From Candidatus Poribacteria bacterium (GTDB lineage Bacteria > Poribacteria > WGA-4E > WGA-3G): 64,000 nucleotides of DNA. The position numbers and the translations under genes are program-made. The notes beneath the pieces are model-generated. The model saw only the letters and a list, made by a program, of their open reading frames with translations, did not search any database and had not been told where the DNA came from. The DNA lies in the NCBI GenBank assembly GCA_028818705.1, contig JAPPNJ010000064.1:1-64000 (forward strand), in the 5' to 3' direction. Shown here piece by piece: positions 43,978-48,992 of the stretch; the first letter of the stretch is position 1, and each line of letters opens with the position of its first letter.

Positions 43978-45372
43978 ATGGGAATAGAAACGCAGATTTC
44001 CTCAGCGATGCACGCCCCCGGCGCAATACTCTTGATCTCCTGCTATGAACTCGGACATCGACCGATCGGGCTTACCCGTCCGCTCCGCGCACTTGAAACT
44101 GCAGGATTCGCTCCTGATGTGATTGACATTGCTATCGAATCGCTGGACGTTGAGAAAGTCGAGCGTGCTCGTTTCATCGGGATTTCCGTTCCGATGCATA
44201 CAGCACTCAGACTCGGTGTCCACCTCTTGCACCGCATCCGGCATATCAATCCGGATGTCTCTATCTGTATGTATGGGCTTTACGCAACACTCAATGCCGA
44301 CTACCTGCTTTCACACGGTGTTGACTTTTGCATCAGCGGTGAGGTGTCAACGCAACTTGTAGCATTGGCGCGATCTCTCGTAGTGGGAGAACAATCTGAA
44401 ACTCAGGAAGCCGATTTCCCGGTAGCGGAACCACCGCCGTTGGAGATGTATGCCCAATTTGAAGACGAAGGCGAGGTGCGGACCGTCGGGTATACAGAAA
44501 CGACACACGGCTGCAAGCATCTCTGCACACACTGCCCCATTCCACCGGTTTATGAAGGTAGGTTTTTTGCTGTGCAACGCGATATTGTCCTCGCCGAGAT
44601 ACATGAGCAGGTAGTGGAAGGCGCGACCCATATTACCTTCGGTGATCCAGATTTTCTTAACGGGCCGACACATGGACTCCGCATCCTCCGCGCGATGCAC
44701 GAAACTTTCCCGAGTCTAACCTTTGATTTTACAACCAAGGTTGAGCACATTCTAAAAAATAGAGAATACTTCCCGGAATTAGCACAACTTGGATGTCGGT
44801 TCGTTATCTCTGCCGTTGAAGCATTGGACGAGCGAGTGTTAACAATCTTAGAGAAGCATCACACGCGTGCTGATGTAGAGGAAGCAATTGACATCGTTCA
44901 TGGAACCGGAATTGCGCTACGTCCCACATGGGTGCCATTTACACCGTGGACAACCTTGAATGACTATCTTGAGATCCTCCAGTTTATTGACGCACATCGT
45001 CTTGTCTATCACGTGGATCCGGTGCAATATGCGGTTCGCTTACTAATTCCGCCCGGTTCATATCTACTCAACCGTCCTGAAGTGAAAACGCTATCCCTTG
45101 CGCTTGATGAAGCTTCCTTCAGTTACACGTGGGCACATCCGGATTTCCAAATGGATGAACTTCACAAAACGGTTAATGACCTCGTTGAAAACGACGCTCG
45201 CACCGGTGTGGATGCTCTGGAAACCTTTTATAGGATATGGGAACTCGCCGCCGATATGCATGGTAGTAGGTACACTCCGTCGTGCCGTAGTCAACATCTA
45301 CCCGCACCACGACTCACCGAAGCTTGGTTCTGCTGAGCGGAACCTACCGAAGGGCAGTTTGCTCCTATTTAG
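43978..45372 (+). CDS. B12-binding radical SAM selenoprotein with CUAEP tail
   Basis: The track ends the protein at the TGA at 45334, after W-F-C. Reading that TGA as selenocysteine gives F-C-U-A-E-P-T-E-G-Q-F-A-P-I and a TAG at 45370, so 464 residues with Sec at 453. This matches what I recall of the CUAEP/CCAEP-tail radical SAM family. The N-terminal part is a B12-binding-type fold (LLISCYELGHRPIGL ... IGISVPMH). The cluster motif is C179-K-H-L-C183-T-H-C186. A stem can form after the TGA (CCT-ACCGA-AGG inside GAGC...GCTC). Start uncertain. Function unknown; a DUF169 gene follows. Confidence 0.85.
45334..45366 (+). promoter_or_regulatory. Putative Sec codon and SECIS-like hairpin
   Basis: TGA followed by a foldable stretch: GAGC pairs with GCTC, and CCT-ACCGA-AGG forms the tip. 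Stem is partly weak; judged mainly on the conserved C-U-A-E-P reading. Confidence 0.55.
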
Positions 45373-45533
45373 ATTTAACAGTTAATTCTTACTTCGGTTT
45401 GCTCCGTTGTCGTAAACCGGTGTTCCGTAAGGACGTGCGCAGATAGCGTTAATCAACTCCAACTCCTTTGGATTTACCAGAAACCCGTTTTGAACAACGG
45501 ACAAAACGGCGCGAAAGGCTAATTGTTAAAAAT

Positions 45534-46220
45534 ATGTCTGAACAAATTCAACGACTACTTAATTTGGAAACTGCTCCTGTTGCCGTAACATTTCACGATG
45601 CACATCCTGATAATGTTCCTCGTACGGAAGAAGTTGAAGCCTCCGGTTGTAGCTATTGGCGACGCGCAGCGGAAGGCAAAACCTTCTATACCGAAGCATC
45701 TGACCATTATAACTGTCCAATCGGATGTTATACACACAACGTTGAGTTACCGCCTACGCAAGCCGAGGAACTCCAAAATACCCTCGGACTGATGGTGGAA
45801 CTTGGTTACATCGCTATGGAGGAAGTCCCAGGTATACCGCGTCGAGAAAACCTGTTCCAAAGTGCGGTCTATTCTCCATTAGCAGATGCGACCGGTACAC
45901 CTGACGTTGTCATTATCTCTGGCACACCGAGACAAATGATGCTCTTGACGGAAGCCGCAACCGCTGCGGGTATTGGAACTCAAGACGGTGTCATGGGTAG
46001 ACCAACGTGTGCTGTCATCCCTGCTGTCGTACAGGGAGGTCGAAGTGCGAGCAGTTTGGGGTGCATCGGTAACCGCGTCTATACAGCACTTTCCGACGAT
46101 GATTTCTACTTCGCTTTCCCCGGTGAACACATTGATGCGATCGTCGAAAAGTTAGAGACAATTGTGAATGCGAATCGAGCATTAGAGGCATATCATCAGC
46201 AACGCCAAGCGGATTTTTAA
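45534..46220 (+). CDS. DUF169 family protein
   Basis: Start placed at 45534 (MSEQIQRLLNLETAPVAVTF), where the family begins; the track start adds 22 residues. 228 residues. Family marks are C-S-Y-W-R-R-A near residue 40, D-H-Y-N-C-P-I-G-C-Y-T-H with conserved cysteines, G-T-P-R-Q-M-M-L-L, and S-L-G-C-I-G-N-R. DUF169 proteins have no established function; the conserved Cys residues suggest a metal or cofactor. It follows the radical SAM selenoprotein by about 160 bases on the same strand, a possible functional link. Confidence 0.85.
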   Translation: MSEQIQRLLNLETAPVAVTFHDAHPDNVPRTEEVEASGCSYWRRAAEGKTFYTEASDHYNCPIGCYTHNVELPPTQAEELQNTLGLMVELGYIAMEEVPGIPRRENLFQSAVYSPLADATGTPDVVIISGTPRQMMLLTEAATAAGIGTQDGVMGRPTCAVIPAVVQGGRSASSLGCIGNRVYTALSDDDFYFAFPGEHIDAIVEKLETIVNANRALEAYHQQRQADF

Positions 46221-47909: not shown

Positions 47910-48992
47910 TCAGGTTAAATCAAGTACGCTCCGTGCGACTTCACCCCTTGCCAAAGCCTCAAACGCATCATTTATCCCTGCCAGCGGATATGTCCGCGTG
48001 ACGAGTTCATCCAGTTTTAATTGTCCTGATTTATAAAGTGAAACCAGGCGTGGGAAGTCCACATGCGGGCGCGCGGTCCCGTACAGAGAACCAATAACCG
48101 TTTTCTCTGCTATCAGCATTCGAGCATCGAATTCGATGCCGGTATTTTCCGGGGCGTGTCCAACGAAGACGGTTACACCCCTGCTTCGCGTACAAAGGAT
48201 CGCTTGCCGAAACGTTTCACCTATTAATCCGATTGCCTCAAAGGCATAATGGACACCTTGTCCGTCAGTGATCTCCTTAATCTGTTCTACAGGGTCCCCT
48301 TTAGAGGCGTTTACCGTGTGCGTGGCCCCGAACTGTCTACCGAGTTCGAGTTTGTTGTCTAATACATCCACGGCAATAATAGGTTCACCTCCAGAGAGCG
48401 CAGCACCTTGTATGCAGTTGAGCCCAACCCCGCCGCATCCAAAAACTGCAACTGAGCTGCCGGGTGAAACTTCTGCTGTATTGATAGCAGCACCAACCCC
48501 TGTCATCACACCACAGCCGATGAGTGCGGCTTGTGCGAACGGCATGTCTTTATCAATAGGAACGACTGCGTCTTGTGGAACCAATGTCTCGGTTCCGAAA
48601 GTTCCCAATCCTGACATCTGATCGATTTCACGTCCGCTCGTTTTTATAGCAGGTTTGCCTGAAGCGTCAGCGGGAAGCGCGCACAAATTCGGGTACCCTT
48701 TCTGGCACATTTCGCAGTAGCCACAGTTCCGTTTCCATGAGAGGATTACATGGTCGCCGACCTGTACTTGGGTTACATCGCTTCCGATCTCTTCTACGAT
48801 TCCAGCGCCTTCATGTCCGAGGATAACAGGTAACTTAACCTGGGGCCAGTCTCCCTTAACGACGTGCCAATCGGAGTGGCAGACTCCACTGGCTACCAAT
48901 CGCACCCGTACCTGATTTGAATTTGGACGCGGTAAGTCGAACTCTTCAATTTTTAAATGCGTGTCGGTTTCATATAATACTGCAGCTTTCAT
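47910..48992 (-). CDS. Zinc-dependent alcohol dehydrogenase family protein
   Basis: 360 residues of the class III-like MDR family. Catalytic zinc: C in GVCHSDWHV and the GHEGAGIVEEIG motif with His; structural zinc: CGYCEMCQKGYPNLC. NAD-binding: VAVFGCGGVGLNCIQGA, followed by D in VDVLDNK. It is close in layout to S-(hydroxymethyl)glutathione dehydrogenases (FrmA) but the substrate is not certain. GGAGG precedes the ATG. Cytoplasmic. Confidence 0.92.
   Translation of the reverse strand: MKAAVLYETDTHLKIEEFDLPRPNSNQVRVRLVASGVCHSDWHVVKGDWPQVKLPVILGHEGAGIVEEIGSDVTQVQVGDHVILSWKRNCGYCEMCQKGYPNLCALPADASGKPAIKTSGREIDQMSGLGTFGTETLVPQDAVVPIDKDMPFAQAALIGCGVMTGVGAAINTAEVSPGSSVAVFGCGGVGLNCIQGAALSGGEPIIAVDVLDNKLELGRQFGATHTVNASKGDPVEQIKEITDGQGVHYAFEAIGLIGETFRQAILCTRSRGVTVFVGHAPENTGIEFDARMLIAEKTVIGSLYGTARPHVDFPRLVSLYKSGQLKLDELVTRTYPLAGINDAFEALARGEVARSVLDLT

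What the first reader, a model, noticed from the sequence alone, without database searches (positions are those of the whole stretch)
43978..45372. Hidden selenocysteine in a radical SAM protein: the annotated stop is read through to give CUAEP
The ORF ends W-F-C then TGA, but the next codons are GCG GAA CCT ACC, so reading TGA as Sec gives F-C-U-A-E-P-T, followed by 8 more residues and a TAG. This matches the C-terminus of the CUAEP/CCAEP-tail radical SAM family as I remember it. A CxxxCxxC cluster motif and a B12-binding-type N-terminal region fit. A stem-loop can be drawn directly after the TGA.
Basis: partly seen in the sequence, partly recalled or inferred. Interest (0 to 1): 0.82.

Follow-up and report, generated by a model that had tools for sequence, protein, structure and literature searches.

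The report
Radical-SAM selenoprotein hidden by UGA
An uncultured Poribacteria genome carries an enzyme gene whose internal "stop" codon is almost certainly read as the rare amino acid selenocysteine, giving a conserved Cys-Sec tail; the enzyme family is already catalogued, but what it makes is unknown.

Summary
The frame 43978-45336(TGA)-45372(TAG) encodes a 464-residue radical SAM protein ending WFC-U-AEPTEGQFAPI. It scores 626 bits against NCBIfam NF040546 (CUAEP/CCAEP-tail radical SAM (seleno)protein; cut-off 500). Of 79 homologues with the site covered, 57 have TGA there and 22 a Cys codon: the decisive Cys/Sec pairing. Sec forms share a hairpin whose loop starts 19 nt after the UGA. It shows compensatory changes and is missing from all 22 Cys forms; it fits the published bacterial SECIS model, except that the window's own copy misses the energy threshold. 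The genome has selA, selB, a selD that is itself TGA-containing, and selC, split across two contig ends next to selB. So this is a new (poribacterial) member of a named family. Added here: the covariation-supported SECIS; a linked DUF169 gene (in 31 of 31 genomes with the enzyme, 1 of 12 without); kinship to the arsinothricin enzyme ArsL; and a RefSeq Thermomicrobium roseum member truncated at the same UGA. The reaction is unproven; ArsL-like group transfer and a conventional B12-type reaction are the main guesses.

The parts
43978..45372 (+). Complete coding sequence of the CUAEP radical SAM selenoprotein, 464 residues, ATG to TAG, TGA read as Sec
   Evidence: NF040546 626 bits over residues 17-462
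44032..44367 (+). B12-binding-type N-terminal domain, residues 19-130
   Evidence: Pfam PF02310, 32.4 bits against a cut-off of 32.1; fold match to corrinoid-binding domains and B12-type radical SAM enzymes
44497..44916 (+). Radical SAM core, residues 174-313
   Evidence: Pfam PF04055, 46.8 bits
44512..44535 (+). CxxxCxxC [4Fe-4S] cluster motif (C179, C183, C186)
   Evidence: sequence CKHLCTHC; cysteines invariant in 49 family members
45331..45333 (+). Cys452 codon, the Cys of the Cys-Sec pair
   Evidence: invariant in 49 members; also aligned with a Cys of the ArsL tail
45334..45336 (+). UGA codon read as selenocysteine (Sec453)
   Evidence: TGA in 57 loci, TGY in 22 loci at this position
45337..45369 (+). 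C-terminal tail AEPTEGQFAPI translated after Sec
   Evidence: only synonymous variation in the AEP codons of 55 distinct tails, T in 54 of 55
45352..45364 (+). Bacterial SECIS hairpin: stem 45352-45355 with 45361-45364 (plus a possible A-U closing pair 45356-45360), apical G-U at 45357-45358, loop starting 19 nt after the UGA
   Evidence: core pairs formed in 98-100% of 54 distinct Sec sequences and lost in Cys homologues; covariation; consensus model in PMC13188914
45370..45372 (+). True stop codon TAG
45534..46220 (+). DUF169 (COG2043) protein, conserved downstream neighbour and co-occurring partner (ATG start; an upstream TTG at 45468 is also open)
   Evidence: PF02596; neighbourhoods; co-occurrence

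Best explanation
The gene encodes a selenocysteine-containing radical SAM enzyme of the NCBIfam CUAEP/CCAEP-tail family. During translation, SelB with Sec-tRNA(Sec) is recruited by the hairpin at 45352-45364 and inserts Sec at the UGA 45334-45336. Translation then continues 11 residues to the TAG at 45370. Strongly supported by comparison: the extension is translated, Sec replaces a Cys, and the SECIS and the full Sec machinery are present. Inferred: the enzyme uses one [4Fe-4S] cluster and SAM in a B12-type radical SAM fold, and its C-terminal Cys-Sec pair works as a soft-ligand or redox pair. Inferred and weak (about 0.3): like its closest named relative ArsL, it transfers a group from SAM (in ArsL the 3-amino-3-carboxypropyl group) to a soft acceptor held by this pair, in a pathway that uses the adjacent DUF169 protein and, in some lineages, an ATP-grasp amino-acid ligase. 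The confidence given is for the Sec reading, not for the reaction.
For: Family: NF040546 626.2 bits, cut-off 500. Cys/Sec pairing: 57 TGA and 22 TGY loci at the same column, flanked by C and AEP. In relatives, each of the 48 full-length family hits over the cut-off has exactly one in-frame TGA; in the 30 fetched it is the CUAEP codon. Tail under protein-level selection. SECIS: in 29 distinct sequences, 26 cells with changes on both sides against 7.7 in shuffles (0 of 500 as high) and a covariation score of 0.380 against 0.169; sliding the register lowers both. 53 of 57 Sec loci form the core hairpin as the local MFE, 0 of 22 Cys loci. Loop and spacing rules match the published model (PMC13188914). 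Machinery: selA 596 bits, selB 338 bits, selD 361 bits with its own TGA in VKCAGUASK, selC in two halves at the ends of contigs C202 and C27, 52 and 53 nt identical to a relative's tRNA-Sec, overlapping by 11 nt, directly next to selB. UGA is a normal stop elsewhere in the window (4 of 38 long ORFs), so the code is not reassigned. Kinship to ArsL: NF040542 hit at 1e-96, 35-38% identity to plasmid ArsL-family proteins. Fold: best matches are B12-type radical SAM enzymes AprD4, OxsB, MgmA and TsrM.
Against: No direct evidence of Sec incorporation (no mass spectrometry). In the window's own copy the hairpin is weak (-3.2 kcal/mol for the 13-nt hairpin, -5.0 for the best 21-nt fold, against the model's -7.5 threshold), and in isolation the region prefers another fold (-9.6 against -6.9 kcal/mol). 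The genome is a fragmented assembly with 5.6% estimated contamination and selC broken across contigs. For the reaction: no ars genes were recognised near the gene, the RCCLKC tail of ArsL is absent, and cobalamin binding is not shown.
Confidence: 0.95

Rival explanations
1. UGA is a genuine stop and the downstream AEP tail is a decaying relic of an ancestral longer protein.
For: Nothing specific. The region before the tail, about residues 430-443, is variable between lineages, so a shorter protein might still fold.
Against: The tail after the UGA is under strong protein-level selection in 55 distinct sequences from several phyla. The Sec machinery and a SECIS restricted to UGA forms are present.
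Confidence: 0.02
2. UGA is read through, or the genetic code is reassigned, giving Trp, Gly or another residue rather than Sec.
For: Some uncultured bacteria do reassign UGA (general knowledge).
Against: UGA ends other genes in the window. Homologues carry Cys, not Trp or Gly, at the site. selA, selB, selC and selD are present. Each full-length family hit in relatives has a single in-frame TGA.
Confidence: 0.01
3. On function: a conventional cobalamin-dependent radical SAM enzyme such as a methyltransferase, whose Cys-Sec tail protects or tunes the cluster, with no link to ArsL-type chemistry.
For: The closest solved folds are mostly B12-type enzymes: OxsB, TsrM, MgmA, CysS. The Pfam B12-binding domain is just above its cut-off.
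Against: The best sequence relative outside the family is ArsL, at 1e-96, whose reported reaction is transfer of the 3-amino-3-carboxypropyl group (PMC8552651). The nearest fold, AprD4, is a 1,2-diol dehydratase, not a methyltransferase. I see no classical DxHxxG cobalamin motif in the B12-type domain (by eye).
Confidence: 0.4
4. On function: an ArsL-like enzyme transferring the 3-amino-3-carboxypropyl group of SAM to a metalloid or chalcogen bound by the Cys-Sec pair, giving an unusual amino acid used with an ATP-grasp ligase.
For: ArsL kinship and a Cys pair in the tail of both families. ATP-grasp amino-acid-ligase-like genes near many Cys-type members (18 loci, 15 of them Cys) and ATP-grasp genes near two plasmid ArsL-family genes; the one pair compared is 25% identical over 355 residues, E 1e-26.
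Against: No arsenic genes recognised beside the CUAEP genes examined; the ArsL tail is RCCLKC, not CUAEP; the ATP-grasp gene was not found beside the window gene.
Confidence: 0.3

Closest known systems
NCBIfam NF040546, CUAEP/CCAEP-tail radical SAM (seleno)protein
   Same: Full-length match over the equivalog cut-off, identical C-terminal motif, Sec or Cys at the same column.
   Different: Nothing that would exclude membership; this is a poribacterial Sec form. No paper describing the family was found in the library held, and the 2026 selenoproteome review held does not contain CUAEP, CCAEP or an NF0405 accession.
NCBIfam NF040542, ArsL (RCCLKC-tail), arsinothricin biosynthesis
   Same: Homologous over most of its length (E 1e-96), same CxxxCxxC motif, Cys pair in the C-terminal tail.
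   Different: Below the ArsL cut-off (324.7 against 450 bits), tail CUAEP rather than RCCLKC, longer C-terminal region, no ars neighbours seen.
TIGR04167 radical SAM selenoprotein (rSAM_SeCys)
   Same: Listed in reviews as a radical SAM protein with Sec.
   Different: Different family; TIGR04167 was not among the NCBIfam hits at E 0.001.
B12-type radical SAM enzymes with solved structures (AprD4 6fd2, OxsB 5ul4, MgmA 9ccb, TsrM 6wtf)
   Same: Whole-protein fold (Z 22-24 over 336-409 residues).
   Different: 15-18% identity; fold alone says nothing about the reaction.

Membership tests
NF040546 CUAEP/CCAEP-tail radical SAM (seleno)protein | Score over the curated equivalog cut-off of 500 bits | tested here: met
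   626.2 bits with the tail; 618.8 bits by genome search
NF040546 CUAEP/CCAEP-tail radical SAM (seleno)protein | C-terminal C-[U/C]-A-E-P motif | tested here: met
   WFCUAEP at 45325-45345; invariant in 49 aligned members
NF040546 CUAEP/CCAEP-tail radical SAM (seleno)protein | CxxxCxxC radical SAM motif | tested here: met
Bacterial selenoprotein | Homologues with Cys aligned to the UGA | tested here: met
   22 loci with TGY
Bacterial selenoprotein | selA, selB, selC, selD in the same genome | tested here: met
   selC is split across two contig ends, both halves identical to a relative's tRNA-Sec
[quoted passage not shown]
   4-5 bp, loop AGUUU (or GUU), 19-20 nt spacing
Bacterial selenoprotein | bSECIS energy of -7.5 kcal/mol or lower | tested here: inconclusive
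   window copy -5.0 for the best 21-nt fold, above the threshold; 32 of 57 Sec loci pass on a 24-nt stretch; median -8.3 against -2.1 in Cys loci. The exact stretch used by the published model was not reproduced.
Bacterial selenoprotein | Sec detected in the protein | not testable with these tools
   needs mass spectrometry or 75Se labelling
NF040542 ArsL | Score over the cut-off of 450 bits and RCCLKC tail | tested here: not met
   324.7 bits; the tail is CUAEP
Cobalamin-dependent radical SAM enzymes | Bound cobalamin | not testable with these tools
   B12-type fold and a marginal Pfam hit only

The most novel reading that the evidence does not exclude
The CUAEP family is a selenocysteine-using branch of the ArsL clade in which the Cys-Sec pair binds a metalloid or other soft acceptor for transfer of a group from SAM, with DUF169 as a regular partner: an uncharacterised organometalloid or unusual amino-acid pathway spread over Poribacteria, Planctomycetota, Nitrospirota and others.
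Probability: 0.15. Interest if true: 0.75.

Novelty: new member of a known kind. Interest (0 to 1): 0.4.

Why it matters
Ordinary gene callers cut this protein at the UGA and lose its most conserved tail, including the likely working residue. This happens even in a RefSeq record (Thermomicrobium roseum WP_012643191.1). The family is widespread, I found no described reaction for it, and it is a relative of the enzyme that makes an arsenic antibiotic. The DUF169 link and the ATP-grasp ligase neighbours give concrete hypotheses for a pathway, and the Cys forms give a Sec-free protein for biochemistry.

Tried and rejected
Rfam at gathering thresholds found nothing in the window, so the SECIS had to be tested by comparison. 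Folding the single sequence gave no significant hairpin directly after the TGA. A longer piece (45325-45370) folds well (z -2.5) by pairing GGTTC with GAACC across the UGA, but this inverted repeat lies in the WFC..AEP codons, which the protein fixes in Sec and Cys forms alike, so I do not count it as the SECIS. The first look for selC in the genome failed: the best hits were other tRNA genes. It was resolved by searching with a relative's selC neighbourhood. An early script mishandled minus-strand loci and was redone. A search for selB on the T. roseum megaplasmid found none; its chromosome was not searched. TIGR04167 was considered; it is not among the hits. Genetic-code reassignment was rejected because UGA ends other genes. 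The tree is the quick version; the careful search did not finish. Two papers by Haft and colleagues on new selenoprotein families were not in the library, so I cannot say whether they describe CUAEP. The AlphaFold model was meant to show whether the Cys-Sec pair sits at the active site, but the tail is of low confidence.

Full report
Observation. The frame starting at ATG 43978 runs to TGA at 45334-45336 and, in the same frame, to TAG at 45370-45372. With TGA as Sec the protein is 464 residues and ends WFCUAEPTEGQFAPI. It contains CKHLCTHC (C179, C183, C186), a Radical_SAM domain and a B12-binding-type domain.

Family. NCBIfam NF040546, named CUAEP/CCAEP-tail radical SAM (seleno)protein, matches residues 17-462 with 626.2 bits (cut-off 500). 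The next family is ArsL, NF040542, at 324.7 bits (cut-off 450). A full-text search for 'CUAEP' found no paper, and a 2026 review of the prokaryotic selenoproteome contains neither CUAEP, CCAEP nor an NF0405 accession (PMC13188914). Two Haft papers cited there were not held.

Cys/Sec pairing. A scan of one genome per species returned 80 loci; in 79 the tail is covered. Of these, 57 have TGA and 22 have TGC or TGT at the site, all with C before it and AEP after it. Sec forms are in Poribacteria, Planctomycetota, Rokubacteria, Methylomirabilota, Tectomicrobia, Acidobacteriota and Gemmatimonadota; Cys forms are in Nitrospirota, Ignavibacteriota, Bacteroidota and Acidobacteriota. On a quick tree the trait needs 4 changes against 19.5 in shuffles (several long branches). 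In 97 genomes searched, each of the 48 full-length hits over the cut-off has exactly one in-frame TGA; in the 30 fetched it is at CUAEP.

Selection on the tail. Across 55 distinct Sec-type tails, codons 2-4 encode A-E-P without exception and codon 5 encodes T in 54. Third positions vary freely (minor-base fraction 0.40 against about 0.02 at positions 1 and 2). The tail is translated.

SECIS. Numbering from U of UGA, positions 19-22 pair with 28-31 around a loop AGUUN at 23-27 (window 45352-45364). In 54 distinct Sec sequences these four pairs are formed at 98, 100, 100 and 100%; in 22 Cys sequences at 45, 64, 32 and 18%. Pair 21-29 occurs as G-C, U-A, C-G, G-U and U-G. On 29 distinct sequences the number of cells with changes on both sides is 26 against 7.7 in shuffles (0 of 500 as high), and sliding the register lowers every measure. 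Synonymous recoding of the same peptides gives a mean energy of -4.2 against the observed -8.6 kcal/mol. The core hairpin is the local minimum in 53 of 57 Sec loci and 0 of 22 Cys loci. [quoted passage not shown] The window's copy meets the first three; its local energy (-5.0) is above the threshold, so it is a weak example of a well-supported family element.

Machinery. G000 (6.04 Mb, 232 contigs) has selA (596 bits), selB (338 bits) and selD (361 bits) that reads VKCAGUASK with its own TGA. No tRNA-Sec reached the threshold at first, although 64 of 73 genomes searched, mostly relatives, have a match over the cut-off. The reason is an assembly break: a relative's selC neighbourhood aligns to the ends of contigs C202 (next to selB) and C27. 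The two ends hold the first 52 and last 53 nt of a tRNA-Sec identical to the relative's, overlapping by 11 nt. UGA ends 4 of 38 long ORFs in the window, including the alcohol dehydrogenase at 47910-48992, so it is not reassigned.

Surroundings. The downstream DUF169 gene (45534-46220) is the usual next gene in many poribacterial and in several planctomycetal and Nitrospira members. Among 43 genomes of the same family, all 31 with the enzyme (two of them as fragments) have its ortholog. Of 12 without the enzyme only one has it, and there it starts at base 64 of a contig, so the enzyme gene may simply be cut off (Fisher p 2e-9, which ignores relatedness). One genome with two copies of the enzyme has two copies of DUF169. 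In many Cys-type loci the next or next-but-one gene is an ATP-grasp protein with an L-amino-acid-ligase C-terminal domain. Other loci carry NifU- or IscA-like Fe-S assembly genes. Two plasmid ArsL-family genes also have an ATP-grasp neighbour; the one compared is distantly related (25% identity).

Structure. An AlphaFold2 model from 49 sequences has mean pLDDT 88.9, but the last residues including the tail are low (block means 59 and 45), so the position of the Cys-Sec pair relative to the active site is not determined. The fold matches B12-type radical SAM enzymes: AprD4 Z 24.4, OxsB 22.7, MgmA 22.6, TsrM 22.2.

A mis-called relative. The RefSeq protein of Thermomicrobium roseum DSM 5159 (WP_012643191.1, plasmid NC_011961.1), already named CUAEP/CCAEP-tail radical SAM protein, ends at SWFC. 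The next codons are TGA GCG GAG CCG, that is U-A-E-P, followed by GGACCC-GTC-GGGTCC, a hairpin with G-U at the same positions 24-25. SelB is not on that plasmid; its chromosome was not searched.

Mechanism. Sec insertion by the SelB/SECIS route is supported by all comparative tests and lacks only direct chemical proof. The reaction is inferred. ArsL is reported to transfer the 3-amino-3-carboxypropyl group of SAM to As(III) (PMC8552651). CUAEP proteins share its framework and a tail with a Cys pair, but fail its membership test. I put ArsL-like transfer at about 0.3 and a conventional B12-type reaction at about 0.4.

Verdict. Real and correctly interpreted; a new member of a family already named in NCBIfam. 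Interest is moderate: the biology of the family is open, but selenocysteine here is expected from the family name.

Noticed in passing
L163:4944-6413 (Thermomicrobium roseum DSM 5159 plasmid NC_011961.1): RefSeq CDS WP_012643191.1, named CUAEP/CCAEP-tail, stops at WFC; TGA and AEP follow in frame, with a hairpin carrying G-U in the loop. It looks like a truncated annotation in a complete, named-strain genome.
   Followed up: partly
window 45534-46220: The DUF169 gene co-occurs almost perfectly with the CUAEP gene in 43 poribacterial genomes and is its next gene in several phyla; function unknown.
   Followed up: yes
G000 contigs C202 and C27 (L159, L160): The tRNA-Sec gene is split by an assembly break inside the gene, next to selB, so automated searches report selC as missing in this genome.
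   Followed up: yes
L049 / L162 (G000:C113:46443-47366): selD of this genome is itself a TGA-containing gene (VKCAGUASK), a second selenoprotein candidate.
   Followed up: partly
L002 and L003 (G000:C78 end, C154 start): A second selA appears in two pieces at contig ends besides the full copy on C163; paralogue or strain mixture (estimated contamination 5.6%).
   Followed up: no
L125, about 130-1400 bases downstream of the Cys codon, and similar Nitrospirota loci: Cys-type genes are often followed by an ATP-grasp / L-amino-acid-ligase-like gene, which could point to a dipeptide-like product.
   Followed up: partly
window 45326-45344: A GGTTC...GAACC inverted repeat brackets the UGA itself; probably a by-product of the WFC-U-AEP codons.
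   Followed up: partly
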